Assembly: GCF_008634025.1 (NCBI RefSeq)
Contig: NZ_PDCM01000001.1
Span: 3,690,501 to 3,754,500, forward strand
DNA from: Streptomyces albofaciens JCM 4342
GTDB taxonomy: Bacteria; Actinomycetota; Actinomycetes; Streptomycetales; Streptomycetaceae
Length of the DNA stretch: 64,000 bases
Reading direction: 5' to 3'
The position numbers and the translations under genes were made by a program. Under the pieces are notes generated by a model. It had not been told where the DNA came from. It worked only from the letters and a program-made list of their open reading frames with translations, and ran no database searches. Positions 27,999 to 62,692 of the stretch are shown piece after piece (the stretch's first letter is position 1; every line of letters begins with the position of its first letter).

Positions 27999-28082
27999 GC
28001 GTCACCGATGAGGCGTCATCGATCAGGCGTCGCCGACCAAGTGTCATCGATCAGGCGTCACCGACCAAACGTCACCGACCAG
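27999..28082. repeat. 14-bp tandem repeat, six copies
   Basis: Six adjacent units of consensus GCGTCAYCGAYCAR fill 27999-28082 (84 bp), beginning ten bases after the padR stop. Units differ at one to four positions. No open frame or hairpin is implied. Confidence 0.85.
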
Positions 28083-28137
28083 GAATGACAGGCCCAACAG
28101 GGGTGACGCTGCTGACGGCTCCTGTCATGATGTGCCG

Positions 28138-29259
28138 ATGCGCGTGACTACGGGGGATCAGGCCGGGGTTCAGGCCGTCTCGGCGACGGAAGGGAACCGG
28201 GGGCGGCCCGGGATGCCGGAGGCACCGGCGGCCGGCGGCGGCACCGCGCGGGCCCGGAACCTCGGCCTCGTCCTGGCGCTGATATCCGCCTTCGCCTTCG
28301 GCGGCTCCGGCGTCGCCGCCAAGCCCCTGATATCGGCGGGTCTCGAACCGCTGCACGTCACCTGGCTGCGCGTCGCGGGCGCCGCACTCGTCCTGCTGCC
28401 CGTCACCTGGCGGCACCGGCGCCTGCTGCTGCGCCGCCCGGGCCTCCTCCTGGGTTACGGACTGCTCGCGGTCGCGGGCGTGCAGGCGTGCTATTTCGCC
28501 GCGCTGTCCCGTATCCCCGTCGGGGTCGCGCTCCTCATCGAATACCTCGCGCCCGCGCTGGTGCTCGGCTGGGTCCGGTTCGTCCAGCGCAAGCCGGTCA
28601 CCCGGGCCGCCGCCGTCGGCGTCGTCCTGGCGGTCGGCGGTCTGGCCTGTGTGGTCGAGGTGTGGTCGGGGCTGGGCTTCGACCCGGTCGGGCTCGTCCT
28701 GGCCCTCGGCGCCGCCTGCTGCCAGGTCGGTTACTTCGTCCTCTCCGACCACGGCGGCGACGGCGAGGACGCGGCGGACCCGCTCGGCGTGATCGCGTAC
28801 GGGCTGCTGATCGGCGCGGTGCTGCTGACCGTGGTCACGCGGCCCTGGGAGATGGACTGGGCAGTTCTCGGCGGCAGCACGGACATGGCCGGAGTTCGGG
28901 TGCCCGCCGTGCTGCTGCTCGGCTGGCTCGTGCTGATCGCCACGGTACTGGCGTACCTCACCGGCATCCTGTCCGTGCGCCGGCTCTCCCCGCAGGTGGC
29001 GGGGGTGGTGGCGTGCCTGGAGGCGGTCATCGCGACCATACTGGCCTGGGTGCTGCTCGGCGAGCACCTGACCACGCCGCAGCTCGTGGGCGGGGCGGTC
29101 GTCCTGGCCGGCGCGTTCATCGCGCAGTCCGCGACTCCGAAGGGGGAGGCGGCAGACGGAGCCGTCGAGGGCGGACCCGGAGCCGGAAGCGTTGCGGCGG
29201 AGGGCTCCTCGCGTCGAATTCAAGACACCCGGACGCGCTCCTCCTCGGAACGGACCTGA
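28138..29259 (+). CDS. EamA/DMT family transporter
   Basis: 373 aa from ATG at 28138 (GTG at 28132 is possible). There is no Shine-Dalgarno; GTGACG (28103) and CATGAT (28126) are 17 bp apart and end six bases before the ATG, so the mRNA is probably leaderless. A ~40-residue hydrophilic N-terminus is followed by ten membrane segments in two EamA repeats, with VAAKPLISAGLEPLHVTWLR in the first and ILSVRRLSPQVAGVVACLEA in the second. RhtA/YdcZ-like amino-acid or metabolite exporters share this layout; substrate unknown. The C-terminal ~45 residues are a polar tail. Confidence 0.88.
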   Translation: MRVTTGDQAGVQAVSATEGNRGRPGMPEAPAAGGGTARARNLGLVLALISAFAFGGSGVAAKPLISAGLEPLHVTWLRVAGAALVLLPVTWRHRRLLLRRPGLLLGYGLLAVAGVQACYFAALSRIPVGVALLIEYLAPALVLGWVRFVQRKPVTRAAAVGVVLAVGGLACVVEVWSGLGFDPVGLVLALGAACCQVGYFVLSDHGGDGEDAADPLGVIAYGLLIGAVLLTVVTRPWEMDWAVLGGSTDMAGVRVPAVLLLGWLVLIATVLAYLTGILSVRRLSPQVAGVVACLEAVIATILAWVLLGEHLTTPQLVGGAVVLAGAFIAQSATPKGEAADGAVEGGPGAGSVAAEGSSRRIQDTRTRSSSERT

Positions 29260-29374
29260 GGCTGACGGGCGGCCGCAGCCACCCATCTCGTCTGTGACGG
29301 CGCTGGTGGGGACGTGTCCGAGTATCGCGACCCACCCGGAAGGGAGGAGTCCGATTTTTCCCCGCCCATCCGTC

Positions 29375-29403
29375 TTGTTGTCTCATTTTCGCCTGGGTAA
29401 CCT
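29375..29403 (+). promoter_or_regulatory. Promoter of the secreted-protein gene
   Basis: TTGTTG (29375-29380) and TAACCT (29398-29403) are 17 bp apart in a locally less GC-rich stretch; the start would be near 29410, giving a ~38-base leader with GGAAGAGG before the ATG at 29448. Confidence 0.55.
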
Positions 29404-29447
29404 AGCCGATGATCAACTCAGTGACCTGCAGGAAGAGGACTCTCCCC

Positions 29448-29904: not shown

Positions 29905-29946
29905 CGTTGTCTTCACGGGCTGTTCGTAGTGGGCGCAGGTCTGTCC

Positions 29947-30022
29947 GGGGAGGCCGACCGCACCCGGGGAGGCCGACCGCACCCGGGGAGGCCGATCGTG
30001 CCCGAAGAGGCCGATCGTGTCC
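29947..30022. repeat. 19-bp tandem repeat A, four copies
   Basis: Units of GGGGAGGCCGACCGCACCC: two identical copies, then two diverged copies (GATCGTGCCC and GAAGAGGCCGATCGTGTCC variants), and a partial fifth copy. The array lies in the ~350-base non-coding stretch between the secreted-protein gene and the leftward paiB-like gene. Confidence 0.85.
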
Positions 30023-30110
30023 TGAGAGGCCGTGCTGTCTGCCCCCTCAGGATCCTTACGGCCCCTGCGGCACTGCGGCACCTTGCCTCCCTGATGACGC
30101 TTTAGCTCCC

Positions 30111-30186
30111 CTCCTGACGCCTTACCTCCCTCGTGACGCCTTACCTCCCTCGTGATGCCTCACGTCCCTCGTGACGCCTCACGTCC
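30111..30186. repeat. 19-bp tandem repeat B, four copies
   Basis: Units of CTCGTGACGCCTTACCTCC (two with CCTCACGTCC endings) fill 30111-30186, with a degenerate 20-base copy in front (30091-30110). The period equals array A, 90 bp away, but the sequence is unrelated. The array ends 18 bases from the stop codon of the paiB-like gene. Confidence 0.85.
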
Positions 30187-30203
30187 CCCGGCGCCGCCCG
30201 CCC

Positions 30204-30845
30204 TCAACCCCGCCGAGCCCCCATCCGCCGCTGCTGATGGGCGCGCGCCTGGGCGTCGCGGGGCGCGTCCCGCTCGGCCAGGCGGGCCGAGATCCGCTGC
30301 TGCACGGCCTCGGTCCGCTTGCCCGCGTACTTGAACTTGGCGCGTACGTCCGCCACTTCGAGCCGGAGCCCCCGGATGCCGGGCAGTTGACGTCCGTAAG
30401 GCGGGCCGTCCGCGGTGACCGGCGCCGAGCCGCCCTCGGGCTGGAAATGGCCTACCTGGCGCTCCAGCAGCGCGGCCTTCTCCTGCGGGTCGTCCACGAT
30501 GTGTGCCGTGCAGGTGAGTTGCACGGCGGCATAGAAGCTGGTGGGGACGCCGTGCTCGGGCGGGTCCTCCTCGGCGGCCTGCCAGGGCCCGGGTATGAAC
30601 ACGTAGTCGTCCACCACGCTCAGCAGCACCGTCGGGGCGGCCTCCAGGGCCGGCCATATCGGGTTGGGGCGGGCGAGGTGGGTGACGACTTCCCGGCGGG
30701 CCCGGTCGTAGGCGAAATGCAGGGGCTGGACGAGGGGCGCGGCGCCCGGCGGCCCGTTGACGGCGAGCTGGCCGAAGTCGTGGCCGGCCAGCCAGTCCTG
30801 CCACTCGGCGTCGTCGGTGGGGGCGTCCCACGGGTGGATCAGCAT
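30204..30845 (-). CDS. PaiB-like FMN-binding protein
   Basis: 213 aa; ATG at 30845 behind GAAGGAGGA. It starts MLIHPWDAPTDDAEWQDWL and continues with APLVQPLHFAYDRARREVV, ARPNPIWPALEAAPTVLLSV and YVFIPGPWQ, matching the PaiB family (FMN-binding split-barrel, annotated as negative transcriptional regulator in Bacillus protease control). The C-terminus has GIRGLRLEVADVRAKFKYAG, also typical. It follows the PPOX-class gene by 11 bases, so both flavoproteins are one operon, divergent from MocR. Confidence 0.87.
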   Translation of the reverse strand: MLIHPWDAPTDDAEWQDWLAGHDFGQLAVNGPPGAAPLVQPLHFAYDRARREVVTHLARPNPIWPALEAAPTVLLSVVDDYVFIPGPWQAAEEDPPEHGVPTSFYAAVQLTCTAHIVDDPQEKAALLERQVGHFQPEGGSAPVTADGPPYGRQLPGIRGLRLEVADVRAKFKYAGKRTEAVQQRISARLAERDAPRDAQARAHQQRRMGARRG

Positions 30846-32895: not shown

Positions 32896-33044
32896 CGCGC
32901 AGGGAGACGTCGGGTACGGCCGTGCGGCGACCACGTCACAGGGCCGACCGCGGCAGGGGAGCTGCCAAGGGGTGAGGGCCAGGAACGGCGATGAGGGCAA
33001 CGGCCGGAAACGGGCACGAGGGCCACGGCCAGGAACGGCCATGA

Positions 33045-33104
33045 GTGAACGGCCACGAGGTGAACGGCCATGGGGTGAACGGCCACGAGGTGAACGGCCA
33101 CGAG
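33045..33104. repeat. 15-bp tandem repeat, four copies
   Basis: GTGAACGGCCACGAG occurs four times in a row (33045-33104; one copy has CATGGG). Weaker copies of the core AACGGCC extend left to ~32980. The array ends ~30 bases before the GNAT start. Confidence 0.85.
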
Positions 33105-33135
33105 GGGGAACGATGCCGGTGATTACGATCGCACG

Positions 33136-36490: not shown

Positions 36491-38377
36491 TTAGTCGGCA
36501 GGGGCGGACGGGACGATGCCCTGGATGATGTCGAGGTCCAGCAGGTCCTGTGGGCGCAGGCGGAGTTGGTCGGCCGTGTCGCGCACCGCGTCCGCGTCGC
36601 GCTTGAGGATGGCGGCGGCGGATTCCGGCGCGATGACGGAGAAGTAGCTGTCCGGCGTCGCCCACAGCGCGCCCGGCGCGGCCAGGGCCAGCGCGCCGCC
36701 CGACCCGCCTTCCCCGATGAGCAGCGAGGTGACGGGCGTACGGACCGAGGCCAGCACGGCGAAGACGTCCGCGATGGCCGCGCCCGCGCCGGCGCGCTCG
36801 GCGTCCGGGCCGTTGTCCGCGCCCGGTGTGTCCACGAGCGTGAGCACCGGTATGCCGAGCCGGTCCGCCAACCGGATCAGCCGGGCGGCCGTACGGAATC
36901 CGGCGGGGCGCACGGCCGTACCGCACTGCGCGGCGAACGCGATCGTGCGGCCGTCGCGCCGGCCGAACCCGCAGCGTATGCCCGTATCGGTGCCGCCGCA
37001 GCGATCACCGATGATCTCCTCCCGCCAGTCGAAGTACGCGTCCAGATACGCCGCGGCGCGCGGTCGCCGCTCGTCGCGGGCCGCGCACACCGCCGCCCAG
37101 CCGGAGGCCGGGAGGCCGGACGACCCGAGGGCGTGCGGCGGTGGGGGAGGGGGCGGGAGCGCATCCACGGGCCCGGGAACCTCGGACGTCAACAGCCGCA
37201 GCCAGCGTCCGAGCCTCGCGCGCAAATGGTCCGGCGGGACGACGGCGTCGATCTGGCCCGCGGCCAGCTGGCCTTCGGCGCTGTACGCGTGCGGGTCGGC
37301 GTCCGCCGGGCGGACCCGTGAGCCGGCGAAGCCGATCTGCGCCCCGGGGAGCGCGAGGACGACATCGGCGCCCGCGCCCAGCGTCGCCCAGCCGCCGCCG
37401 GTCGTCGGGTCGCGGACCACGGCGATCTGCGGCAGGCCCGCGGCGCGGGTCCGTGCGGACTGGGCGGCCACGCGCTGGAGCTGGGTCAGTGCCCGCATGC
37501 CTTCCTGCATGCGGCTGCCGCCTGTGGCGATCAGCGATACGACGGGCAGGCGCAGTTCACGGGCGCGGGCGTAGGCGGCCACCAGCCGGTCTCCGGTGCG
37601 CCGGCCGAGGGAGCCGCCGAGAAAACCGAACTCGAAGGAGATCAGCACGGCCGCCATGCCGTCGATCCGGGCGATGCCGCTGATCACGGACTCGTGTTCG
37701 CCGGTACGGGCCCGGGCCCGCTGCCGCGCGGCGCCGTAGCCGTCCCAACCGAGCGGCCCGTCGTCGGTTTCCGGCGAGCTGTCGGGTCTGCTGGCAGGTG
37801 TTCTGTCAGGTGTTCTGTCAGGAGTTCTGTCGGATGCGCTGCCAGACGTGCTGTTTGGTGCGCGGCCTGATGTGCTGTCGGGCGGCGTGCCGGCCGTTGC
37901 CGCCCGGTCCTGGCCCGGACTCCCGTCGGCCGGTGTGGAGTCCTCGGTCTCCGGTGCCGGGAACTCGGTGAAGTCCTCCGCCACCACGGCCACCGCCTCG
38001 CGCGCCGACCAGCGCGGTGACGGCCCACGCGAGCCGTCTCCGGTTCTGCCCGAGCCGCCTCCGGTTCTGCCCGAGCCGCCTCCGGTTCTGCCCGAGCCGC
38101 TCCCGTTGGTTCCTCCCGAGCTGCCGCCGTTGGCCCCGTGCGAGCCATCCCCGTTGGTTCCGTACGGGCCGCCCGCACCGGATCCGCCCGAGCCGCCCGC
38201 ACCGGACCGGCCCGGGCCGTCTGCACCGGATCCGCCCGAGCCGCCCGCACCGGACCGGCCCGGGCCGCCTGCGCCGGATCCGCTCAAGTCGCCGGGCCCG
38301 CCCAGGTCGCCGGACCCGCTCGCATCGCCGGACCCGCCCGGGCCGTCCCACCCGCCCGGCGGTGAGTCCCTACGCAC
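36491..38377 (-). CDS. Acyl-CoA carboxyltransferase (fused alpha/beta) with low-complexity insertions
   Basis: 628 aa; GTG at 38377 overlaps the end of matB by eight bases. The carboxyltransferase core has both halves: VISGIARIDGMAAVLISFEF, GGSRMQEGMRALTQLQRVAA and PTTGGGWATLGAGADVVLAL, then GIPVLTLVDTPGADNGPDAE and LIGEGGSGGALALAAPGALW. The first ~105 residues are Gly/Ser-rich repeats and a second Thr/Ser/Pro-rich stretch (~145-205) separates the conserved AREAVAVVAEDFTEFPAPE from LGWDGYGAARQRA. Those two parts are normally adjacent, so the second stretch is an insertion. Coupled to matB, it may use or make malonyl-CoA; biotin partners are not nearby. Confidence 0.85.
   Translation of the reverse strand: MRRDSPPGGWDGPGGSGDASGSGDLGGPGDLSGSGAGGPGRSGAGGSGGSGADGPGRSGAGGSGGSGAGGPYGTNGDGSHGANGGSSGGTNGSGSGRTGGGSGRTGGGSGRTGDGSRGPSPRWSAREAVAVVAEDFTEFPAPETEDSTPADGSPGQDRAATAGTPPDSTSGRAPNSTSGSASDRTPDRTPDRTPASRPDSSPETDDGPLGWDGYGAARQRARARTGEHESVISGIARIDGMAAVLISFEFGFLGGSLGRRTGDRLVAAYARARELRLPVVSLIATGGSRMQEGMRALTQLQRVAAQSARTRAAGLPQIAVVRDPTTGGGWATLGAGADVVLALPGAQIGFAGSRVRPADADPHAYSAEGQLAAGQIDAVVPPDHLRARLGRWLRLLTSEVPGPVDALPPPPPPPHALGSSGLPASGWAAVCAARDERRPRAAAYLDAYFDWREEIIGDRCGGTDTGIRCGFGRRDGRTIAFAAQCGTAVRPAGFRTAARLIRLADRLGIPVLTLVDTPGADNGPDAERAGAGAAIADVFAVLASVRTPVTSLLIGEGGSGGALALAAPGALWATPDSYFSVIAPESAAAILKRDADAVRDTADQLRLRPQDLLDLDIIQGIVPSAPAD
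38034..38099. repeat. 21-bp tandem repeat in the carboxyltransferase gene
   Basis: Three near-identical units of CTCCGGTTCTGCCCGAGCCG+C. In the minus-strand frame they encode the heptapeptide SGRTGGG repeated, part of the Gly/Ser tail. Confidence 0.85.
38190..38285. repeat. 48-bp tandem repeat (2 x 24) in the carboxyltransferase gene
   Basis: Two 48-bp copies (38190-38237, 38238-38285) differ at few positions, each made of two 24-bp subunits around GAGCCGCCCGCACCGG. They encode octapeptide-type repeats such as GSGADGPG and RSGAGGSG. Confidence 0.85.
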
Positions 38378-40532: not shown

Positions 40533-40673
40533 CCGTGGACCACCTCCGCTGTACGGCGGCCGGGCGCGGCCCGCACCGGCCTGTCCGAGTGCCAAGGAAG
40601 CATGCTGGGGGCTCTTCCTTACGGATGCAATGGCGGCTACGCTCACGCGGCCCGCGGCGGTACGACCACCACC

Positions 40674-40788
40674 AGAAGGGCCGACCCGATGCCATCAGAA
40701 GGGCCGACCCGATGCCACTGGGAGGGCCGATCCGATGCCATCAGAAGGGCCGACCCGATGCCACTGGGAGGGCCGATCCGATGCCAAC
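40674..40788 (+). repeat. 23-bp tandem array of ribosome-binding-site/ATG units
   Basis: Five copies of AGAAGGGCCGACCCGATGCC plus ATC or ACT. Each unit carries a purine-rich GAAGGG or GGAGGG and an ATG nine to ten bases later (40689, 40712, 40735, 40758, 40781). A sixth, diverged unit holds the presumed true AGGAGGGGG and GTG start (40806) of the isochorismatase-like gene. ATGs at 40689 and 40758 are in frame with the gene. Confidence 0.88.
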
Positions 40789-40805
40789 AGGAGGGGGTTG
40801 ATCCG

Positions 40806-42155: not shown

Positions 42156-44414
42156 TCAGTTCCCACCCAGGGCCCCGCCCAAGGCCCCGCGCAGGAAATC
42201 GCGCTCGAAGCGAAGCAGGTTCTCGCGGACCGCCGGGTCGCCCACCGAGTGACCGGCCCCCGGCAGTGGCAGCACGCTGTGCTGCTTGCCGGCGGCCAGC
42301 AGTTCCGCGGAGAAGCGCAGGGTGTGTGCGGGTGCCACGTTGTCGTCCGCCAGCCCTTGGACGAGGAGCAGCGGGCGGCGCAGCAGGTGGCCCAGGCCCA
42401 CCAGGGAGGAGCGCGCGTACTGGTCCGGTGCCTCCTGGGGGTGGCCGAGGAAACGCTCCTTCCAGTGGGTGTCGTACAGCCGCTGGTCCGTGGGCGCGGC
42501 ACCGGCGACCGCCGCGTGGAAGACGTCGGGGCGGTGCAGGACGGCGGCGGCCGACAGGAAGCCGCCGAATGACCAGCCGCGGATCGCCACCCGCGTCAGG
42601 TCGAGGCACGGGAAGCGCGCGGCGGCCGCGTGCAGCGCGTCGACCTGGTCCTCCAGTACGGGGGTGAGCTGGTCGCCGTGGATGGCCTTCTCCCAGGCAG
42701 GGCTGCGGCCTGGGGTGCCACGCCCGTCCGCGAGCAGTACGGCGAAGCCTTCCTCGGCGAACCACTGCGCCACACAGGCGAACCACTCACGCGCCCGTAC
42801 GGCCATCTGGATGCTCGGCCCTCCATACGGGCAGAGCAGCACGGGCAGCTTGCCGCCCGCCTCGCGGTCGTACCAGGAGGGCAGGTACAGCGCACCGCGC
42901 AACTCCCGTTCCCCGAGGACGAGGTGCTCGGGCCGCGGAGCGACGACCGGGTCTTCGCCGAGTGAGGCGATGCTTCCGGAGGGGGAGCCGAGTCCATGCT
43001 CGTAAACGTCGGTCACCGGCCCGTCCGGTGTGAGCCCGGTCAACACCACCGTGCCGCCTCCGGCCACAGCCGTGAACACCCCCGGCCGCCCGCTCAGCCT
43101 GCGCAGGCCGTCCTCCGGGTTCCACCGCCACACATGGGTCGTCGTCGGTTCCTCACTGGCGGTGAACCACACCTCCTCGCCCGCCACGGCGACAACTTCA
43201 CGCACCTGTAGCCCGCGGGGCGTGACAGTACTGCCGCCGACCACCAGATGCCGTGTCCCGGGCGTGTCCTCGGGCAGGACCAGCGCTCCCGAAGCCGTAC
43301 GGGCCGGAGTCCCGGGCACGATCTCGACCCAGGCGGCGTCGGTGCGCTCGTGCAGCACCTCGGTAGCGCCGGTGGACTCATCCACCGCCAGCGTCCGCAG
43401 CGTCCGCTGGTCCCGGCTCTGTACGCCGACGAGCGGCCCGTGACCGTCCCAGGCGGCGCTCACCACGTACTCGTACGCGGCCCGGTCCCAGGCCACCTCG
43501 ACACGCGGCGAGCCGGAGCCGGCCACCGCCACGATGTGGAGCGACACATCCGCGTTGGCCGTCCCCGCCGAGGGGTACGGGATGACGCGCGGCGCCCGCT
43601 CCGGGTGCGCCGGGTCGCTGATGTAGCGCCGTGCCACACCGGACGTGTCCACCCTGGCCACCAGAATGCGGCGGCTGTCGGGCGCCCACCAGTAGCCGCG
43701 CGTACGGCCCATCGACTCGCTCGCGACGTACTCGGGCAGCCCGTAGGTGATGTCCGCACCTTCCGGGGCGGCCAGTCGCCGGTCCTCCCCGTCCTCCAGG
43801 CCGACGACGTGCAGCGCGCCGTCGGTCACATACGCGATGTACCGCCCGTCCGGCGAGGGCCGGGGATCGACGACCGGCCCGGCGGCCGGTACACGGAAGG
43901 GGGCGCCCTCGTCCGTACGGACGGCCCACAGCACGCCGGACAGCGCGAAGGCCACCACGCGCGCCGCCGCGTCGGTCGCGTACGCCACCACGCCGGTGGC
44001 GTGCTCACGCGCCCGCTCCCGGCGGGCCCGCTCCGCCTCGGGCAACCGGCCCTCGGAATCCGGCTCCCCTCCCAGGAGCAACGGGTCGACGATCACCCGC
44101 TCCGCCCCGTCCTCGTACCGCCACAAGCGGCTCACGGGATCGCTGCCGCCGCCGGTACGGGCGAACAGCACCCTCCGCCCGTCCGGGGAAACGCTGAACC
44201 GGCGCGGCACACCGAGGGAGAAGCGCTGGGTGAGCGCGAACTGGCGAGGAAAAGCGGAGTGATCCGGAGCGGCCCCGGAAGACGTGGAAGGGGCCTCGGA
44301 AGGAACGGAAGCGGTCCAGGAAGGCGTGGAAGAGACTCTGGAAGGCGTGAAAGAGCCCCCGGAAGGCATGGAAGCGGTCCTGGACAATCCGAAAGAGTCA
44401 TCAACAGGCGTCAT
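42156..44414 (-). CDS. S9 family (DPP-IV-like) serine peptidase with repeat N-terminus
   Basis: 752 aa. After a heptapeptide-repeat tail (residues ~12-48) come the beta-propeller (e.g. RRFSVSPDGRRVLFARTGGG, GLPEYVASESMGRTRGYWWA with the double-Glu-like substrate region) and the alpha/beta-hydrolase domain. The nucleophile is Ser615 in GWSFGG, the acid is in LADDN (~690) and His722 is in AGHS. It should remove N-terminal dipeptides or cleave small peptides; no signal peptide, so cytoplasmic. The other S9 hallmark LPVLLCPYGGP (oxyanion Tyr) is present. Confidence 0.9.
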   Translation of the reverse strand: MTPVDDSFGLSRTASMPSGGSFTPSRVSSTPSWTASVPSEAPSTSSGAAPDHSAFPRQFALTQRFSLGVPRRFSVSPDGRRVLFARTGGGSDPVSRLWRYEDGAERVIVDPLLLGGEPDSEGRLPEAERARRERAREHATGVVAYATDAAARVVAFALSGVLWAVRTDEGAPFRVPAAGPVVDPRPSPDGRYIAYVTDGALHVVGLEDGEDRRLAAPEGADITYGLPEYVASESMGRTRGYWWAPDSRRILVARVDTSGVARRYISDPAHPERAPRVIPYPSAGTANADVSLHIVAVAGSGSPRVEVAWDRAAYEYVVSAAWDGHGPLVGVQSRDQRTLRTLAVDESTGATEVLHERTDAAWVEIVPGTPARTASGALVLPEDTPGTRHLVVGGSTVTPRGLQVREVVAVAGEEVWFTASEEPTTTHVWRWNPEDGLRRLSGRPGVFTAVAGGGTVVLTGLTPDGPVTDVYEHGLGSPSGSIASLGEDPVVAPRPEHLVLGERELRGALYLPSWYDREAGGKLPVLLCPYGGPSIQMAVRAREWFACVAQWFAEEGFAVLLADGRGTPGRSPAWEKAIHGDQLTPVLEDQVDALHAAAARFPCLDLTRVAIRGWSFGGFLSAAAVLHRPDVFHAAVAGAAPTDQRLYDTHWKERFLGHPQEAPDQYARSSLVGLGHLLRRPLLLVQGLADDNVAPAHTLRFSAELLAAGKQHSVLPLPGAGHSVGDPAVRENLLRFERDFLRGALGGALGGN
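44277..44402. repeat. 21-bp tandem repeat coding for heptapeptides in the S9 peptidase
   Basis: Six units of consensus GGAAGGCGTGGAAGCGGTCCT, the last degenerate. In the minus-strand frame they encode RTASMPS, GGSFTPS, RVSSTPS, WTASVPS and EAPSTSS, a Ser/Thr/Pro-rich tail ahead of the propeller. Confidence 0.88.
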
Positions 44415-45326: not shown

Positions 45327-45392
45327 CCGTACCGGCACTGGGGCCGCGCCGTACCGGCAGTGGGGCCGCGCCGTACCGGCAGTGGGGACGCG
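45327..45392. repeat. 22-bp tandem repeat, three copies
   Basis: CCGTACCGGCACTGGGGCCGCG and two near-identical copies; a partial, interrupted fourth copy follows to ~45440. Confidence 0.85.
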
Positions 45393-45499
45393 CCGAGGTC
45401 AGGACCGTACCGGCATCTGGGCCGCGCCGAGGCCGGGACCGAACCGGATACGGCAGGTTGCGCATCGTCTTCAAGCCGCCGCGCCACAGCGCCACCCCG

Positions 45500-45619
45500 G
45501 GCTCACCCCTGCCGGTAGCCCCTCGGTCACCGCTGCCGGTTGTCCGCCGGTCACTTCTGCCGGTAACCCGCCGGTCACCCCTGCCGGTAACCCGCCGGTC
45601 ACCCCTGCCGGTAACCCGT
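45500..45619. repeat. 24-bp tandem repeat duplicating the aminotransferase 3' end, five copies
   Basis: Units of CGGTCACCCCTGCCGGTAACCCGC; the rightmost copy (45596-45619) contains the last codons and TGA stop of the minus-strand aminotransferase gene (TGYRQG-stop). The other copies lie downstream of the stop and diverge leftward. As 24 is a multiple of three, each copy repeats the same codons in frame. Confidence 0.9.
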
Positions 45620-47537: not shown

Positions 47538-47588
47538 GGATGCGATGGCCCGCCCCGTGCGGTGATGTTCCAGGCCGTACTCGGTGAC

Positions 47589-47715
47589 TGGCATGCGTGG
47601 CGATAGGCATGCGTGACGACTGGCATGCATGGCGACGGGCATGCACAGTGGCAGGCATGCACGGCGGCAGGCATGCGCGAGACAGGCACAAGCGCCGACT
47701 GGCATACGTGCGTAA
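47589..47715. repeat. 16-bp tandem repeat with GCATGC cores, eight copies
   Basis: Units such as TGGCATGCGTGGCGAT, AGGCATGCGTGACGAC and AGGCATGCACGGCGGC; six contain the palindrome GCATGC, one unit is 15 bp, and the last two are diverged. The array fills most of the 187 bases between hxlR and the ligase gene and ends ~10 bases before the latter's ATG. Confidence 0.87.
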
Positions 47716-48789: not shown

Positions 48790-49163
48790 TCCGGGACCGG
48801 GCGCGGCGGCTGCGGGCGGGTAGCGCACCTCGCGGGCGTCGAGGTTGTGAAACCCGCTTGCCGCGTCGTCCGGGCCGGGCGTTGTCGTCGCGCGTTGTCG
48901 TCGTGCCTTGCCGTCATGCCTTGTCGTCGGGCCTTGTCGTCGGGCAGGGCAGCGGTCTCGGCTGCCGGGTGGTGACGGCCGGGAGCGGTTCCGGCGACGG
49001 AGAAGCCCACGGGAGCCCCCCACCGGGCCGTCGTCCACTACCGGCCTGCCTGTCCGTCTGCGCGCCTGACCACCTGCCCGCCTGACCGGCCTGCCCCTCT
49101 GACCAGCCTGCCCGTTGACCAACCTGTCCGTCTGATGAAGAGACGCCGACTTGCGCAAGTCTC
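48790..49163. other. Repeat-rich gap after the ligase gene
   Basis: 374 bases without a gene. It holds a 13-bp array (48881-48945, separate entry) and a degenerate ~17-bp periodic stretch of GACCNGCCTGCCCGNCT type at about 49041-49136. No promoter is evident. Confidence 0.6.
48881..48945. repeat. 13-bp tandem repeat, five copies
   Basis: Units of CTTGTCGTCGGGC: the last two are identical, the first three have one to four changes (for example CTTGCCGTCATGC). Confidence 0.85.
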
Positions 49164-49589: not shown

Positions 49590-49885
49590 GGATCTCCTGG
49601 TGGTGCGGGAAGCGGGACATGATCACTTGTCCCCGGTGGTCCCGGTGTCGGCGACGCGTTGCGCAAGGTGTTCGGACGGCATCGGCAGTCCTCTTCGGAG
49701 AACTCCCGCACACAACTGCCGTCGGCGCGACTTCTCATGTCACCGTTGGGCTGCTGATGCGATCATATCGCTGAAAAAGGGGTGGTCGGAGAGGAGTTGG
49801 AGAGCGGGCGGCATCCGTCGGGATCGGGACACCGGAGGGGCGGGGGAGACCCCGCAGCGCACCCCCGACAGACAGGAGGCCTGCC
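49590..49885. other. Divergent region before the small ORF
   Basis: 296 bases; less GC-rich around 49735-49790 (GATGCGATCATATCGC), a plausible promoter zone for the rightward small ORF at 49886 or the leftward lipoprotein. No gene. Confidence 0.4.
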
Positions 49886-50604: not shown

Positions 50605-51039
50605 CTAACTGCATTGGCAGGCAGCATCCGGTATCCGTACCGTTGCGCCGTGGCGGTGACAGGCGGGCCGGCGAACTTCTATTGCAGGAATGGGGTGATC
50701 CATCCCTGCCACGGCCGGCGACGGCGAAGACACCCGCCGTGTATTTGGCCGCTTCGTACACCCGTAGCCCGCGCCCTTGTCGCCCGCGTCGATGTCCTTG
50801 CCGGCTGCCACGTTGAATGCGACGGCGCCCACCATGGTTCCCAGACCGAGAACGAGCAGGCTGGGCAGGATGTGCGGGAGGTGGGCGCTGTCGGGCGAGG
50901 CGAAGGCCAAAGCCAGCAAGCCGGACGCGCTGACGAGCTGAGCGGCACCGGCCACAGTCGTCCACCGCATACGGCGCAGGAACCGGTTCGCCACCGTGGA
51001 CCCGCCCTTCCGGGATGCGGCGCGGGCTGGGTGCGCCAT
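50605..51039 (-). pseudogene. MFS transporter C-terminal remnant, frameshifted
   Basis: The minus frame from 51039 encodes FLRRMRWTTVAGAAQLVSAS, GLLALAFA and LPHILPSLLVLGLGTMVGAV, followed by DAGDKGAGYG: the last membrane helices and the conserved loop of a DHA2-type MFS protein. After GAGYG the frame is lost; a one-base shift gives VYEAAKYTAGVFAVAG, the expected next helix. The N-terminal ~350 residues are absent. A decayed exporter gene in the remnant stretch. Confidence 0.65.
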
Positions 51040-51087
51040 GAGCCGCTCTCCCGGGGCCCGCTGGGGCGAACACCGGGAGAGCGGGGC

Positions 51088-52032: not shown

Positions 52033-52076
52033 CGTTCGTCTCCTTGCGGTGCGTGTGCGGTCGGGGCGTGAGGGGA

Positions 52077-52901: not shown

Positions 52902-53037
52902 GATTGTTCCTTTCGTGAGCCCGCGAACGTGGCATGTGCCGCGGGGCGGGTCTTTCGCGTCGAGCCTGGCTCGCAGCCCCAGGCGCGGGCCCGCGTGCAG
53001 GAGCGGATGAGTGCCCCCGCGTGGGGCCCGCAGCGGG

Positions 53038-54549: not shown

Positions 54550-54556
54550 GCCGCCC

Positions 54557-54577
54557 AAGCTAGGACCCTTTTAGGAC
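54557..54577 (-). promoter_or_regulatory. MFS promoter with TAGGAC direct repeats
   Basis: On the minus strand TAGCTT (54562-54557) stands seven bases before the MFS ATG, consistent with a leaderless start. On the plus strand TAGGAC occurs at 54561-54566 and 54572-54577, exactly 11 bp apart (one helical turn), a plausible site for the divergent WYL regulator. Confidence 0.5.
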
Positions 54578-54612
54578 ACCTCGCGTCCGTAAAGAGGGGC
54601 AATCTGGAGAGC

Positions 54613-55566
54613 ATGACGACCGACCTGCCCGCCCGGATGCTCCGCCTGCTGTCCCTGCTGCAGACCCGCCGCGAATGGTCCGGCACCGAACTCGCCGCAC
54701 GCCTCGACGTCACCGGTCGCACCATCCGTCGCGACATCGACCGCCTGCGGGACCTCGGCTACCCCGTCGAAGGCACCACCGGCCACGCCGGCGGCTACCG
54801 CCTCGCCTCCGGCACCGCCATGCCCCCGCTGATCCTCGACGACGGCGAAGCCATCGCCACCGCCGTCGCCCTGAGCACCGCCGCCGGCCACCTCACCGGC
54901 ATGGAGGAAACCTCACTGCGCGCCCTGGCCAAACTCGAACAGATCCTGCCCGCCCGGCTGCGTACCCAGGTCGCGGCCGTACAGCAGACGACGGCCACCA
55001 TCGGCTGGGAAACCTGCGGACCGCGCGCCGACCCCGAACTGCTGGGCAGCCTGGCCACCGCCTGCCGCGACCACGAGAGCGTCACCTTCGACTACACCAC
55101 CCGCCACGGCACCCGCCGCGTCGACCCCCACCATCTCGTCGCCTCCGGCGGCCTGTGGTACCTCCTCGCCCACGACACCGGCAAAGACGACTGGCGCATC
55201 TTCCGCCTCGACCGCATCACCGACCCGGCCCCCACCCGCCACCACTTCGCCCCCCGCCCCGTCCCCGGCGACGACCCGGCCGCCTACGTCGCCGACAAGA
55301 TCGCCACCGCTCCCGCCCGCTACCGCGCCATCGCGACCGTGCACGCCTCCGCCGACACCGTCCGCCGCCGCACCTGGGCCCTGGCCACCCGCGTCCGCCC
55401 CCGCGACGAGACCACCTGCACCGTCGACTGCTCCAGCAACCACCTCCCCGGCATCGCCCAAACCCTCGCCGCCCTCGACGCCGACTACACCCTCGATGCC
55501 GACCCCGAGGTGACCGCCTACCTCCACCAGGCCGCCGCACGCATGCAACACTCCGTCACCTCATGA
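54613..55566 (+). CDS. HTH_11/WYL-domain transcriptional regulator
   Basis: 317 aa; ATG with GGAG five bases upstream. Residues 1-65: DeoR/HTH_11 winged helix (ARMLRLLSLLQTRREWSGTE, LAARLDVTGRTIRRDIDRLR, DLGYPVEGTTGHAGGYRLAS). Residues ~130-215: WYL domain with ESVTFDYTTRHGTRRVDPHH and SGGLWYLLAHDTGKDDWRIF, then FRLDRITD. C-terminal WCX extension to the end. WYL regulators sense small ligands or nucleic acids. Its position opposite the MFS cluster indicates local control. Confidence 0.93.
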   Translation: MTTDLPARMLRLLSLLQTRREWSGTELAARLDVTGRTIRRDIDRLRDLGYPVEGTTGHAGGYRLASGTAMPPLILDDGEAIATAVALSTAAGHLTGMEETSLRALAKLEQILPARLRTQVAAVQQTTATIGWETCGPRADPELLGSLATACRDHESVTFDYTTRHGTRRVDPHHLVASGGLWYLLAHDTGKDDWRIFRLDRITDPAPTRHHFAPRPVPGDDPAAYVADKIATAPARYRAIATVHASADTVRRRTWALATRVRPRDETTCTVDCSSNHLPGIAQTLAALDADYTLDADPEVTAYLHQAAARMQHSVTS

Positions 55567-55718
55567 CCTCCTGACCGACACCCACGGCCTCCGACCAGCA
55601 GACGCGGTCACCGAGGTGTGAGGGGGTTTGAGGCGTGTGGTTGAAAATTGACACCCCGAAATCTCCCCAGACCCCTCCGGAGGGTCTCTCGGGCGAGCGG
55701 GGCGGCCGGGATGGATTC

Positions 55719-55746
55719 GATGCAACCGTATCGATATACTTGCATC
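55719..55746 (+). promoter_or_regulatory. Inverted repeat upstream of the HipA-like kinase gene
   Basis: GATGCAA and TTGCATC form a perfect 7-bp inverted repeat separated by 14 bases that themselves contain TATCGATA. It lies ~70 bases before the kinase start in a locally AT-richer stretch, so it is a likely operator. TAGCCT (55803-55808) seven bases before the ATG is the likely -10 of a leaderless transcript. Confidence 0.55.
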
Positions 55747-55815
55747 AGTAAGCGTGGGCTGAACCGACCGCACGTCGCTGACCTGCGACGAAGACCAGGA
55801 AGTAGCCTGATCCGC

Positions 55816-56640
55816 ATGTTGTCCGAAGTCACCGCGACCCGCTATGTCACGCCCTTGCGTGAAGGCGGGTCGCTTCCGGGGATCGTCGAGGGTGATGATC
55901 TCGGTACGTATGTCATGAAATTCACCGGGGCGGGGCAGGGGCGCAAGACCCTGGTTGCCGAGGTCATCTGTGGGGAGCTGGGGCGGCGGCTCGGGTTGCG
56001 GGTGCCGGAGTTGGTGCGGATGCAGCTCGATCCGGTGATCGGGCTGAGTGAGCCCGATCAGGAGGTGCAGGAGCTGCTGAAGGCCAGTGGGGGCCTGAAC
56101 CTGGGGATGGATTATCTGCCGGGGTCGCTCGGGTTCGATCCGCTCGCGTTCGAGGTGTCGGCGCGGGAGGCGGGGCGGGTCGTGTGGTTCGACGCGCTCG
56201 TCAACAACGTGGACCGCTCGTGGCGCAACCCGAACCTGCTGGTCTGGCACGGGGAGCTGTGGCTGATCGACCATGGCGCCACGATGATCTGGCAGCACAA
56301 CTGGCCCACCGCCGAGAAGTCCGCGGCCAAGCCGTACGACGCCTCTGACCATGTGCTGGCGAGCTTCGGGCCGGACATCGAGGCCGCGGCGGCCGAGTTC
56401 GCGCCGCTGGTCACCGAGGAGCTGCTGACCGAGGTCGCGGCCGCCGTGCCGGACGAGTGGCTGGCGGACGAGCCCGGCTTCGACTCGCCGGACGAGCTGC
56501 GCGGCGCCTACGTACGGGCGCTGCTGGGACGTGCCGCGGTGATCGGGGACCGGATCGGCATCGGGGAACGTACGAAGGACGGGCCCTCCCGGGTACCGGG
56601 CTGGCTGGCGACCGAGTTGCCGCGGAGGACAGTGAAGTGA
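55816..56640 (+). CDS. HipA-type kinase family protein
   Basis: 274 aa from ATG at 55816. It begins MLSEVTATRYVTPLREGGSL and keeps kinase-fold residues: Lys35 in TYVMKFTGAGQG (phosphate-binding lysine), catalytic Asp133 with Asn138/Asn140 in NNVDRSWRNPNLL, and Asp152 in LWLIDHGATM (metal-binding, DFG-like). It is much shorter than HipA (~440 aa), lacking the N-subdomain that contacts HipB. Family members are annotated as HipA family kinases without known substrates. It overlaps the DUF3037 gene by four bases, so the two products are likely made together. Confidence 0.85.
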   Translation: MLSEVTATRYVTPLREGGSLPGIVEGDDLGTYVMKFTGAGQGRKTLVAEVICGELGRRLGLRVPELVRMQLDPVIGLSEPDQEVQELLKASGGLNLGMDYLPGSLGFDPLAFEVSAREAGRVVWFDALVNNVDRSWRNPNLLVWHGELWLIDHGATMIWQHNWPTAEKSAAKPYDASDHVLASFGPDIEAAAAEFAPLVTEELLTEVAAAVPDEWLADEPGFDSPDELRGAYVRALLGRAAVIGDRIGIGERTKDGPSRVPGWLATELPRRTVK

Positions 56641-57032
56641 GCGGCCTGCACAACGGACGTGACGTGTTCGAGTACGCCCTGCTCAGGGTCGTACCGCGGG
56701 TCGAGCGCGGGGAAATGATCAACGCGGGGGTGGTCGTGTACTGCCGCGCCCGGCGCTTCGTGGAGGCGCGTACGCATCTGGACGAGGGGCGGTTGCGGGC
56801 GCTCGACGCGCACGCGGATGTCGAAGGGGTCAGGGCGGCTCTGCGTGCCGTCGAGGGGATCTGTGTGGGCGGCGAGCGCGCCGGGCAGGCTGCGGGCGAC
56901 GATGCGGGGCGGCGCTTCCGGTGGCTGATCGCGCCGCGCAGCACCGTCGTCCAGCCCGGCCCGGTGCACACCGGGCTGACCGCGGACCCGTCGATCGAGG
57001 CGGAGCGGTTGCTCGATCTGTTGGTGAGGTGA
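56637..57032 (+). CDS. DUF3037 family protein
   Basis: 131 aa; GTG at 56637 overlaps the kinase stop (GTGA), with GGAGG nine bases upstream. The family block is FEYALLRVVPRVERGEMINA, GVVVYCRARRFVEARTHLDE and RWLIAPRSTVVQPGPVHTGL, TADPSIEAERLLDLLV. No enzyme motif or membrane segment is visible; one conserved Cys follows the VVVY strand. DUF3037 genes commonly follow a short HipA-type gene, so a paired function is likely, but nothing biochemical is known. Confidence 0.87.
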   Translation: MSGLHNGRDVFEYALLRVVPRVERGEMINAGVVVYCRARRFVEARTHLDEGRLRALDAHADVEGVRAALRAVEGICVGGERAGQAAGDDAGRRFRWLIAPRSTVVQPGPVHTGLTADPSIEAERLLDLLVR

Positions 57033-58055: not shown

Positions 58056-58826
58056 ATGACCGCACAGGACAAGCCGCTGCCCGCGTTCTCCGGCAAGGCG
58101 GCGCTGGTCACCGGCGCCAGCCGGGGCATCGGATACGGCATCGCCAAGGCGCTGGTGGCCCGCGGCGACAAGGTCTGCATCACCGGCCGCAACGAGGACG
58201 CCCTGAAGGAGGCCGTCGAGACGCTGGGCGCCGACCGCGTCATCGGCGTCGCGGGCAAGGCCCACGACGAGGCCCACCAGGGCGTCGCCGTGGAACGGGC
58301 CATGGAGGCGTTCGGCCGCGTCGACTACCTGGTCAACAACGCCGGTACGAACCCGGTCTTCGGCCCGATCGCGGACCTCGACCTGAACGTCGCCCGCAAG
58401 GTGTTCGAGACCAACGTCGTCTCCGCGCTGGGCTTCGCGCAGCGCACCTGGCACGCGTGGCAGAAGGACAACGGCGGCGCGATCGTCAACATCGCCTCCA
58501 TCGCGGGCGTCTCCGCGTCGCCGTTCATCGGCGCGTACGGCATGAGCAAGGCCGCGATGATCAACCTGACGTTCCAGCTGGCGCACGAGTTCGCGCCGGT
58601 GGTACGGGTCAACTCGATCGCCCCGGCGGTGGTCAAGACCAAGTTCGCGGCCGCGCTGTACGAGAACCGTGAGGAGGAGGCCGCCGCGGGCTACCCGATG
58701 GGCCGCCTCGGCATCCCCGCGGACATCGGGGGCGCGGCGGCGTTCCTGCTGTCCGACGCGGCCGGCTGGATCACGGGGCAGACGCTCCAGGTGGACGGCG
58801 GTCTGTTCCTGAACGCGGGCGTCTGA
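58056..58826 (+). CDS. SDR family oxidoreductase
   Basis: 256 aa; ATG with GGAGG upstream, 17 bases after the FabG-like gene. TGASRGIGYGIAKALVARGD is the cofactor loop, NNAGTNPVFGP and the catalytic set in IASIAGVSASPFIGAYGMSK (Ser, Tyr, Lys) are complete, as is QVDGGLFL at the end. The protein keeps PVVRVNSIAPAVVKTKFAAA. This resembles actinobacterial SDRs beside FabG-like proteins; the substrate is unknown. Its last four codons and stop lie in a 25-bp tandem repeat. Confidence 0.9.
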   Translation: MTAQDKPLPAFSGKAALVTGASRGIGYGIAKALVARGDKVCITGRNEDALKEAVETLGADRVIGVAGKAHDEAHQGVAVERAMEAFGRVDYLVNNAGTNPVFGPIADLDLNVARKVFETNVVSALGFAQRTWHAWQKDNGGAIVNIASIAGVSASPFIGAYGMSKAAMINLTFQLAHEFAPVVRVNSIAPAVVKTKFAAALYENREEEAAAGYPMGRLGIPADIGGAAAFLLSDAAGWITGQTLQVDGGLFLNAGV

Positions 58827-58890
58827 GGTGCCGACGGGCGCGGGCGTCTGAGGTGCCGACGGGGGCGGACGTCTGAGGATGCCGACGGGC
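58815..58890. repeat. 25-bp tandem repeat duplicating the SDR 3' end, three copies
   Basis: GCGGGCGTCTGAGGTGCCGACGGGC occurs twice (second copy ends G), then a 26-bp copy and a partial one. The first copy contains the GCG-GGC-GTC-TGA end of the SDR gene, so the stop codon is present in every unit. Confidence 0.88.
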
Positions 58891-59020
58891 GCGGGAGGCT
58901 GAGGGCGGGCGTACGCGGGTTGCGCGCGCCGGGCGGCGCGCCCCGCGTGGGTGCGGGCGCACCGCGTACGGAAGCGCGCGCAGCGACTTGCGTTCGCGTG
59001 CACTCCAAGAGGCAGGGTCC

Positions 59021-59051: not shown

Positions 59052-59055
59052 TTCT

Positions 59056-60869: not shown

Positions 60870-60916
60870 GCCGGGAGCGAGGTGGGCGGCGCGGACGGGG
60901 GCGGCCCGGCCGCGTC

Positions 60917-61357
60917 GGGGTTCCGGTCACGCTGGCGTCCCGGTCGCCTCGGCGTCTCGGCCACGCTGGCGTCCCGGCCGCGTCGGGGTTCCGGTCACGC
61001 TGGCGTCCCAACCGCGTCGGCGTCTCGGCCACGCTGGCGTCCCGGCCGCGTCGGGGTTCCGGTCACGCTGGCGTCCCAACCGCGTCGGCGTCTCGGCCAC
61101 GCTGGCGTCCCGGCCGCGTCGGGGTTCCGGTCACGCTGGCGTCCCAACCGCGTCGGCGTCCCGGCCACGCTGGCGTCCCGACCACCCCGGCGCCCCGGCA
61201 CTCCGGCGCCCCAACCGCGTCGGCGTCCCGGCCACTCCGGCGCCCCAACCGCGTCGGCGTTCCGGTCACTCCGGCGTCCCGACCACCCCGCGCCCCGACC
61301 ACCCCGGCGCCCCGACCACCTCGGCATCCCGACCACTCCGGCGCCCCGGCCGCCCGT
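60917..61357. repeat. 17-bp minisatellite with 34- and 68-bp higher-order periods
   Basis: About 26 units based on GCGTCCCGGCCACNCCG. From 60917 to 61188 they are arranged as eight 34-bp blocks alternating GGGGTTCCGGTCACGCTGG and GGCGTCTCGGCCACGCTGG types, which gives a 68-bp higher order; the right part (61189-61357) is simple 17-bp repeats, with one 16-bp unit. The array fills the space between the convergent ung and lipoprotein genes and stops two or three bases before the latter's stop codon. Confidence 0.9.
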
Positions 61358-61360
61358 CGC

Positions 61361-61861
61361 TCAGCCCCCGTACACCCGGCGGCAGATCTCGTCGGTTCGG
61401 TCGTCGCCCTGCCAGCGGCCGTACTCCCGGGCCAAGGCGCAGAGGCCGGGGGCCGGTGCGGCCGGGCGGCGGGTCTTGGAGCGTTGCCACGGGAAGCCGA
61501 AGCGGCGGTCTCGGGGGCCGGCCCCCGTCTTCGGGCCGCCTTCCGCCTCCCGGCCCGTGCCCTTTCCCTTCCGCGCGGACTCCGGCTGCGGCCGCTGCGG
61601 CCGCTTCGTCCGCTGTGTGCCGGAGGCCGGGGGACCGGCCGGTACGGAACGCCGCGCGGCCGGGCCGGACGGTGGCGCTCCCGGACGCTCGCGGCGCGGG
61701 GACTGGGTGACCTCCGGGCCGATGGGCTCCACGGACGGGGCGGGCGCCACGGGGCGCGGCTGGAGGCTCTCGGGGGCCGGGCGGTGGGCGACGGTGACAC
61801 ATCCGGTGGCGACCGCGGCCGTCGTCACCGCGAGGGCCGCCGCTGCGGGAATACGGAACAC
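61361..61861 (-). CDS. Proline-rich lipoprotein
   Basis: 166 aa; GTG at 61861. Signal FRIPAAAALAVTTAAVATGC ends in lipobox ATGC at residue 21, so the protein is anchored outside the membrane. Residues ~25-135 are Pro/Arg/Lys-rich and disordered. Only the end, CALAREYGRWQGDDRTDEIC, followed by RRVYGG, looks folded and carries two cysteines. A short helical C-terminus of this kind after a long linker is seen in several Streptomyces lipoproteins; no function known. Confidence 0.8.
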   Translation of the reverse strand: MFRIPAAAALAVTTAAVATGCVTVAHRPAPESLQPRPVAPAPSVEPIGPEVTQSPRRERPGAPPSGPAARRSVPAGPPASGTQRTKRPQRPQPESARKGKGTGREAEGGPKTGAGPRDRRFGFPWQRSKTRRPAAPAPGLCALAREYGRWQGDDRTDEICRRVYGG

Positions 61862-61939
61862 CGGCCAACTCTGCCGATCACGGCCCCCTTTGGGAAGGAC
61901 CCGCGGGAGTGATCGGTCCGAGCGGCCGTTGACGCCGGA

Positions 61940-62692
61940 TCAGCCGCGGCCGAGCAGGCCGGTGAGCAGTTCCTCGACACCGGTGCGCAGTTCGCGCCGG
62001 GTCGGCGGCGTGGCGTGGAACTGTCCGGCGATACAGGAGAAGAGCATGCCGTCGCACCAGGCGAGCACGTTCAGGGCATGCCGTTCGGGTGCGGTGGACC
62101 CGGCCGCGGTCAGCATCGCCACCAGCGGCTCGCGGAACCGCTGTCCGGCCCGGTCGTAGAAGGCGCGCAGTTCGGGGCGCCGGGTGGCCTCCAGGGCCAG
62201 TTCGTACCGGGCGACGGCCAGGTCCCGGTGGCGGGTCAGCGAACGGTGCAGGCCGAGGGAGAGGGCGTCGGCGAGGGCCGCCGGGCCGCTGTCCGCCGCG
62301 CCGGGCATCTCATGGGGTGTCAGGACGGCCGCCTCCCGCTCGGCCAGCCGCCGTACCGCCGTTTCCAGCAGGGCCGCGCGGGTGCGCGCGAGGTTCGAGG
62401 TGGAGCCTTGCGGGAGCCCGGCGGCCTCGTCGACGGCCCGGTGGGTGAGCCCGCGCAGCCCGCGCTCGGCGAGCAGGGACAGCGCGGCGTCGGCGACGCG
62501 GTCGTGGCGGGTCTTGCCGGTCGCGGCCCCGGGAGGAGCGGCCTTGCCGGGGGTGGCCCTGCCGGACGTGGTCTTGCCGGTCGCGGCCCCGAGGGGCGTG
62601 GTCTCACCGGGGGCGGTCCGGTCGGTCGTGGCCCTGTCGTCGGCGGCCTGGTCGGCCGTGGCCTTGTCGGGAGTGGCGGCACTGCGGGTCAT
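61940..62692 (-). CDS. TetR-family regulator with pentapeptide-repeat N-terminal tail
   Basis: 250 aa. Residues 6-60 are eleven pentapeptides (ATPDK, ATADQ, AADDR, ATTDR, TAPGE, TTPLG, AATGK, TTSGR, ATPGK, AAPPG, AATGK). The TetR helix-turn-helix follows at ~62-110 (VADAALSLLAERGLRGLTHR and AVDEAAGLPQGSTSNLARTR). The C-terminal ligand domain has RYELALEATRRPELRAFYDR and CDGMLFSCIAGQFH. Two ACTACANGTGTAGT palindromes between it and the divergent FAD monooxygenase are its probable operators. Whether translation really starts before the tail or at a later start cannot be seen, but no later ATG/GTG with a good site exists before the HTH. Confidence 0.88.
   Translation of the reverse strand: MTRSAATPDKATADQAADDRATTDRTAPGETTPLGAATGKTTSGRATPGKAAPPGAATGKTRHDRVADAALSLLAERGLRGLTHRAVDEAAGLPQGSTSNLARTRAALLETAVRRLAEREAAVLTPHEMPGAADSGPAALADALSLGLHRSLTRHRDLAVARYELALEATRRPELRAFYDRAGQRFREPLVAMLTAAGSTAPERHALNVLAWCDGMLFSCIAGQFHATPPTRRELRTGVEELLTGLLGRG
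62513..62677. repeat. 15-bp imperfect repeat coding for the TetR N-terminal tail, eleven units
   Basis: 165 bp made of eleven 15-bp units in frame; at DNA level the best-conserved units share GGTCTTGCCGGTCGC- and GGCCTTGCCGGGGGT-like sequences. Confidence 0.8.

What the first reader, a model, noticed from the sequence alone, without database searches (positions are those of the whole stretch)
27999..62677. Unusual density of unrelated short tandem arrays in one 64-kb window
I can point to arrays with periods 14 (27999), 19 (29947 and 30111), 15 (33045), 21 and 48 (38034, 38190), 23 (40674), 21 (44277), 22 (45327), 24 (45500), 16 (47589), 13 (48881), 25 (58815), 17/34/68 (60917) and 15 (62513). 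Their sequences are unrelated, so this is not one dispersed repeat family. They cluster from 28 kb rightward, while the conserved block 1-22 kb has none. This suggests a strain-level tendency to expand local sequence by slippage, tolerated outside core genes.
Basis: partly seen in the sequence, partly recalled or inferred. Interest (0 to 1): 0.7.

Follow-up and report, generated by a model that had tools for sequence, protein, structure and literature searches.

The report
Clustered young tandem repeats between genes
This stretch of a Streptomyces chromosome really does carry many unrelated short DNA repeats that appear to have grown in place, and related species often carry different repeats in the same gaps between genes, so it looks like a mutation-prone region rather than a mobile element or a new gene.

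Summary
In detail: every listed array is present with about the stated period. Tandem Repeats Finder gives 16 arrays of score >=80; shuffles average 0.10. Fifteen start at 27,999 or later, none in 1-22 kb, and no two window arrays are related. Slippage fits: where a syntenic relative (G045, Streptomyces rimosus) is unexpanded or shorter, short direct repeats lie at exactly the array's period in three of five sites examined. But it is not one strain's uniform habit. The matching gene block is array-rich in three related species (9.3, 5.4, 8.0 per 20 kb) and empty in a relative at about 80% identity. In 9 of 14 comparisons where both species have an array in the same gap, the units do not match. 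Nor are arrays confined outside the core: the densest sampled stretches lie within 1 Mb of dnaA (7.5 per 20 kb; other species 1.0), while elsewhere this genome is not clearly above others (1.8 vs 1.6). Arrays avoid divergent (promoter) gaps and keep frame inside genes (69 of 70). Best reading: fast-turning-over minisatellites born by local slippage, kept where tolerated, unusually dense in particular regions of this group's chromosome. The cause is unknown.

The parts
27999..28083 (.). 14-bp array (28/42 super-units) 10 bp after the PadR-type regulator stop; G045 has a 14-bp array of 11.9 copies in the same gap, G336 none at the threshold used
   Evidence: units of the two species match partially (z 3.8 and 6.3; 9 of 14 bp at best rotation, 6% of shuffles as good)
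29942..30032 (.). 19-bp array downstream of a + strand ORF
30081..30187 (.). 19-bp array with a different unit, just beyond the stop of the FMN_bind_2 gene 30204-30845 (-), in a convergent gap
32977..33105 (.). 15-bp array (25/30 variants) between a GntR/aminotransferase gene and a GNAT gene; G045 has a 24-bp and G336 a 27-bp array in this gap, units not matching
37779..38337 (-). 12-, 24-, 21-, 24- and 18-bp arrays (periods divisible by three) in the Gly/Ser-rich N-terminal part of a carboxyltransferase ORF (36491-38377); G336 has a different in-frame repeat here, G045 a short version
40669..40795 (.). 23-bp array (46-bp super-unit, 95% matches) in a divergent gap; G045 has 15 bp here with an exact 8-bp direct repeat at lag 23; G336 has a 30-bp array instead
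44271..44397 (.). 21/63-bp array upstream of the S9-peptidase gene; 133 bp here against 49 bp in G045
45327..45447 (.). 22/34-bp array upstream of a glyoxalase-family gene
45503..45618 (.). 24-bp array running into the 3' end of the aminotransferase gene 45599-46828 (-)
47586..47688 (.). 16-bp array after the HxlR-type regulator; 169 bp in this gap against 98 bp in G045, unit not found there
48876..48945 (.). 13-bp array after the D-Ala-D-Ala ligase-like gene
49040..49135 (.).
58814..58904 (.). 25-bp array over the stop of an SDR gene; shared with G045 as a 26-bp array of 2.7 copies
60900..61353 (.). 17/34/68-bp array of 454 bp, 31 bp after the uracil-DNA glycosylase stop; G045 has 23 bp here, with an 11-of-13-bp direct repeat at lag 17
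   Evidence: no other close copy in four genomes searched
62506..62669 (.). 15/30/60-bp array at the start of a TetR-type gene; 169 bp here against 52 bp in G045, with a 12-of-14-bp direct repeat at lag 15

Best explanation
These are minisatellite-type tandem arrays born in place, independently of each other, by strand slippage (or another microhomology-driven tandem duplication) between short direct repeats already present in the local sequence, followed by more copy gain and drift. They turn over fast, so sister species often show another array, or none, in the same gap. Selection sets where they survive: they are removed from promoter gaps and from reading frames unless the period is a multiple of three, and tolerated downstream of stop codons. 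In the S. rimosus group they are unusually dense in certain regions: around oriC and in the 27-64 kb part of this window. Shown: presence, number, lack of relatedness, differences between lineages, seeds at three sites, placement and frame rule, uneven distribution in the sample. Inferred: slippage as the mechanism, the relative's allele as the ancestral state, and a regional difference in birth rate rather than in survival. Unknown: the molecular cause. I found no evidence for a function of the arrays themselves.
For: Far above shuffles. One related pair among 130 arrays. Short or unexpanded alleles in G045 at 40669 (15 vs 131 bp), 44271 (49 vs 133), 60900 (23 vs 454), 62506 (52 vs 169). Direct repeats at the exact period in the G045 allele at three of five sites. 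In 9 of 14 cases where both species have an array in the same gap, no unit matches the counterpart at z>=3. Periods divisible by three in 69 of 70 coding arrays of the rimosus group and 68 of 69 of the others. Convergent gaps 38 vs 24.3 expected and divergent 26 vs 46.1 in the rimosus group; 54 vs 19.2 and 14 vs 42.5 in the others (chi-square p 2e-4 and 1e-18). Regional excess: 60 arrays in 8 stretches within 1 Mb of dnaA, 54 in 30 others (p 2e-4); window block 27-49 kb rich in all three related species and empty in G136.
Against: Seeds were weak or uninformative at two of five sites, and at the doubled periods 34 and 30. In 5 of 14 cases units do match partially, so some arrays are inherited rather than new. 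G045 has only 2 arrays in the 18-kb counterpart of the ori-proximal stretch that holds 13 here and 13 in G336. Co-occurrence of arrays in orthologous gaps is weak for G045 (p 0.10) and modest for G336 (p 0.017). Near dnaA coding arrays are enriched too (1.40 vs 0.47 per 10 kb coding), but the window has few (0.21). Between genes 72 of 129 periods are divisible by three, more than a third, so some arrays counted as intergenic are probably coding.
Confidence: 0.72

Rival explanations
1. Ordinary background: arrays arise at the same rate throughout the genus, and this window is a chance cluster in relaxed DNA that a reader's eye picked out.
For: The window was chosen because it looked rich. Away from dnaA this genome does not exceed others (1.8 vs 1.6 per 20 kb, p 0.20). 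One stretch of another species also reached 7 arrays per 20 kb. Arrays of the same kind and placement occur in all groups sampled.
Against: Own genome, G045 and G336 samples each exceed other species (p 0.004, 0.003, 0.001). No locus of 68 named ones reaches the window's density. The same block is rich in three species. Own stretches near dnaA exceed others near dnaA (p 0.001).
Confidence: 0.15
2. The arrays have a function at gene ends, for example as transcription terminators or RNA-stabilising 3' structures, and are renewed by selection.
For: Enriched in convergent gaps and towards the upstream stop in codirectional ones (mean relative position 0.35). Slightly stronger predicted folding than array-free gaps (mean z -1.56 vs -0.85, n 57 and 60, p 0.003).
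Against: No shared unit or period; gaps often lack an array in a sister species. Avoiding promoters explains the placement without a function. The repeated composition itself may affect folding scores.
Confidence: 0.09
3. The arrays are assembly or sequencing errors.
For: Copy numbers cannot be checked without reads.
Against: Copies within arrays differ by substitutions; coding arrays keep frame; two independent draft assemblies show arrays of the same kind. The short G045 alleles share only 8-14 bp at the period, less than a collapsed array would be expected to leave (inference).
Confidence: 0.04

Closest known systems
Tandem repeats of archaeal Borg elements (PMC9879509; abstract, outline and sections 2.1.2 and 2.1.3 seen)
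   Same: Many unrelated arrays, recent, independent, between genes and in frame within genes; absent or different in close relatives; partial repeats at the edges.
   Different: Borg units are enriched in A; here A is slightly depleted (0.128 vs 0.145 in intergenic DNA). Here it is a bacterial chromosome of high G+C and units vary between copies.
Genomes with many unrelated satellites, such as Methanobrevibacter ruminantium (PMC6749651; passages and one section seen)
   Different: Another domain of life and longer units (over 30 nt). The passages seen do not treat regional clustering or sister-species alleles.
Mycobacterial MIRU-VNTR loci (recalled; only search listings seen)
   Same: Minisatellite-sized arrays between genes in an actinobacterium.
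   Different: MIRU is a dispersed family with a shared unit (recalled); here units are unrelated.

Membership tests
Bacterial minisatellite / VNTR loci | Head-to-tail units of about 10-100 bp | tested here: met
Bacterial minisatellite / VNTR loci | Copy number varies between strains of one species | not tested
   Only between-species comparison was made; no second genome of the same species was examined
Borg-type tandem repeats | Independent, recent, not conserved in close relatives | tested here: met
   Mostly: 9 of 14 gaps with arrays in both species have non-matching units, 5 match partially
Borg-type tandem repeats | Periods divisible by three inside ORFs | tested here: met
   69 of 70 and 68 of 69
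Borg-type tandem repeats | Units enriched in adenine | tested here: not met
   A 0.128 vs 0.145 (own), 0.130 vs 0.142 (G336)
Dispersed repeat family (MIRU/REP-like) | Same unit at many loci | tested here: not met
   1 related pair of 130 arrays; no other close copy of the 60900 array in four genomes
CRISPR array | Identical repeats separated by unique spacers | tested here: not met
   Units are contiguous and imperfect; no CRISPR family among the three Rfam matches of the window

The most novel reading that the evidence does not exclude
The S. rimosus group has chromosome regions, around oriC and in an island roughly 1 Mb from one contig end, where tandem duplications are born several times more often than elsewhere, within genes as well as between them. 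The regions are inherited across species while the arrays in them are not: a heritable regional mutation landscape whose cause is unknown.
Probability: 0.28. Interest if true: 0.65.

Novelty: new member of a known kind. Interest (0 to 1): 0.42.

Why it matters
Sister genomes show the short allele, the likely seed and the expanded array side by side, in a bacterium in which no MutS_I domain was found. If the regional clustering holds genome-wide, small tandem duplications are not spread evenly along this chromosome and the cause could be mapped. Practically, the arrays could serve as strain markers in a group used industrially, and they warn about short-read assemblies.

Tried and rejected
Dispersed repeat family: rejected. 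Artefact: judged unlikely, not excluded. Repair-gene cause: MutS_I absent from the own genome (other Streptomyces not tested for it); NucS, IMS/DinB and Ku present in 15 of 15 genomes, so none separates array-rich from array-poor genomes. Ori-proximal enrichment as a rule of the genus: not seen (58 stretches, Spearman -0.20, p 0.14; 9 stretches within 1 Mb average 1.0). A-rich units as in Borgs: not met. My first impression that the 14-bp arrays of this genome and G045 at 27999 were unrelated did not hold: they match partially.

Papers: eight searches listed no paper whose title or abstract start is about intergenic tandem arrays of the S. rimosus group or their regional clustering; the lists were capped and subscription papers are mostly not held. 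The S. rimosus reference genome paper (PMC9045324) has no occurrence of 'tandem' in its main text (term search and passages).

Weak points: a simple home-made gene caller; stretches spaced by hand, not at random; many tests without correction; many of the 68 named loci and G045 are draft assemblies, which may lose arrays; the joining of contig C2's high end to C1's start is inferred.
Full report
WHERE IT IS. The window lies in a 9.25-Mb, two-contig Streptomyces genome (G000:C1:3690501-3754500). The closest relative among the genomes scored is G045, whose contig C59 has the same length (100,952) as NZ_JOCQ01000059.1 of Streptomyces rimosus subsp. rimosus NRRL WC-3904. Over 2.7 kb of the window identity is 95% to G045, 89% to G336 and 81% to G136 (345 of 392 genomes tallied, 47 left unscored by the tool). 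The window starts at the end of an rRNA operon.

CHECK. At score >=80 there are 16 arrays, against 0.10 on average in 40 shuffles. Fifteen start at 27,999 or later; the other is an exact 23-bp duplication at 23944. None of this score is in 1-22 kb. No two window arrays are related.

DENSITY. Arrays of score >=80 per 10 kb: window 2.50; 38 other stretches of the same genome 1.50; G045 1.45 (20 stretches, some short); G336 2.10 (14 stretches); other species 0.74 in 64 stretches, 0.75 in the 58 of these that come from 16 complete or near-complete chromosomes; 68 named loci around the orthologous aminotransferase gene 0.78. Of the 80 loci, L129 (G045) was treated apart and 11 shorter than 15 kb were dropped; one of the 68 is titled Kitasatospora. 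The window piece matching those loci has 8 arrays in 21 kb (3.77 per 10 kb) against a maximum of 2.36 among the 68. Per 10 kb of non-coding DNA: window 9.2, own 5.9, G045 4.9, G336 9.0, other species 2.5, named 3.9. With at least three copies required: window 2.34, own 1.20, G045 0.87, G336 1.73, complete-chromosome others 0.47, named 0.59.

REGIONS. The own genome is uneven. dnaA is at C1:219251. I take the high end of C2 to adjoin the start of C1; this is an inference. It puts dnaA near the middle and NucS (C2:2.95 Mb) about 1.8 Mb from dnaA, where the genomes with both positions on one contig have 1.4-2.0 Mb; the opposite joining would give about 3.2 Mb. On this layout the 8 stretches within 1 Mb of dnaA hold 60 arrays (7.5 per 20 kb) and the 30 others 54 (1.8 per 20 kb; p 2e-4). 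In other species 9 stretches within 1 Mb of dnaA average 1.0 (own against others p 0.001). Further out, own and others do not differ (1.8 vs 1.6, p 0.20). One ori-proximal stretch (L065, 13 arrays) proved orthologous to a G336 stretch fetched earlier without knowing this (L228, also 13 arrays). G045's counterpart has 2 in 18 kb, which speaks against a simple shared hot spot unless its draft assembly lost some. In the window, block 27-49 kb has 9.3 arrays per 20 kb, G045's counterpart 5.4, G336's 8.0 over a shorter aligned part (7.9 here over the same part), and G136 has none in 25.5 kb; the neighbouring block 0.4-21.5 kb has none here and 1.9 per 20 kb in G336. These blocks do not differ much in intergenic share (0.20 vs 0.24).

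SAME GAPS, DIFFERENT ARRAYS. Gap by gap (score >=70, gaps of at least 60 bp in both; window and L065 pooled): G045, 27 gaps: 7 both, 7 only here, 2 only there, 11 neither (p 0.10). G336, 29 gaps: 7 both, 4 only here, 3 only there, 15 neither (p 0.017). Where both have arrays, no unit matches the counterpart gap (z>=3 against shuffles) in 4 of 7 cases with G045 and 5 of 7 with G336. The five with a match include 58814, plainly one array shared with G045 (25 vs 26 bp), and 27999, where both have 14-bp units of partial similarity. Clear replacements are 32977 (15 bp here, 24 in G045, 27 in G336) and 40669 (23/46 bp here, none in G045, 30 in G336).

HOW THEY GROW. Between the anchors, this genome has 454 bp at 60900 against 23 in G045; 131 against 15 at 40669; 169 against 52 at 62506; 133 against 49 at 44271. 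At other sites G045 is the longer one (27999: 177 against 93). I shifted the G045 sequence against itself by the array's period and compared with other lags from 8 to 59. At 40669 an exact 8-bp repeat, at 60900 11 of 13 bp and at 62506 12 of 14 bp lie at the period, and about 2% of other lags do as well. At 44271 10% do; at 58814 G045 already has the array; the doubled periods 34 and 30 show nothing. This is what slippage between short direct repeats predicts. That G045 shows the ancestral state is inferred.

WHERE THEY SURVIVE. Arrays wholly within called genes have periods divisible by three in 69 of 70 cases in the rimosus group and 68 of 69 in the others. Wholly between genes it is 72 of 129 and 45 of 99, so some of these are probably in coding sequence my caller missed, such as the Gly/Ser-rich N-terminal part of ORF 36491-38377, whose repeats differ between this genome and G336 and are short in G045. 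Convergent gaps are enriched (38 vs 24.3; 54 vs 19.2) and divergent gaps depleted (26 vs 46.1; 14 vs 42.5) in the two groups; in codirectional gaps arrays lie nearer the upstream stop (mean relative position 0.35 and 0.37). Arrays fold slightly better than array-free gaps.

CAUSE. Not found. MutS_I was not found in the own genome, while 11 of 14 control genomes had it. NucS, IMS/DinB and Ku occur in 15 of 15 genomes compared. Near dnaA arrays are denser inside genes too (1.40 vs 0.47 per 10 kb coding), which speaks for more births there rather than laxer selection; but the window has few coding arrays (0.21), so for the window this is open.

VERDICT. A real and well-observed feature. Its kind is known (slippage-born minisatellites under purifying selection, as in Borg elements and satellite-rich prokaryotes). 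The regional, group-specific clustering with non-conserved arrays is the part that deserves follow-up.

Noticed in passing
window 48809-55636: Island of difference: this genome has about 6.8 kb between two syntenic blocks where G045 C59 has about 42 kb (22330-64381).
   Followed up: no
window 9343-10959: A DinB-type translesion polymerase gene (IMS, IMS_C) lies in the array-free part of the window; all 15 genomes compared have an IMS gene.
   Followed up: partly
window 55648-57032: HipA-like kinase (HipA_2) next to a DUF3037 gene, possibly a toxin-antitoxin-like pair.
   Followed up: no
window 47725-48789: A D-Ala-D-Ala ligase family gene beside an HxlR-type regulator.
   Followed up: no
window 11367-11464: Glycine riboswitch upstream of a glycine cleavage P-protein gene (11575-14538).
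   Followed up: no
window 36491-38377: Carboxyltransferase ORF with a Gly/Ser-rich N-terminal stretch that is long in this genome and G336, with different repeats, and short in G045.
   Followed up: partly
L247 (G060:C1:6400001-6420000): Array of 9.7 copies with a 276-bp period in another Streptomyces.
   Followed up: no
L059 (G000:C2:2500001-2520000): This stretch of the same genome has only 52.8% G+C against about 72% elsewhere, with 98% called coding.
   Followed up: no
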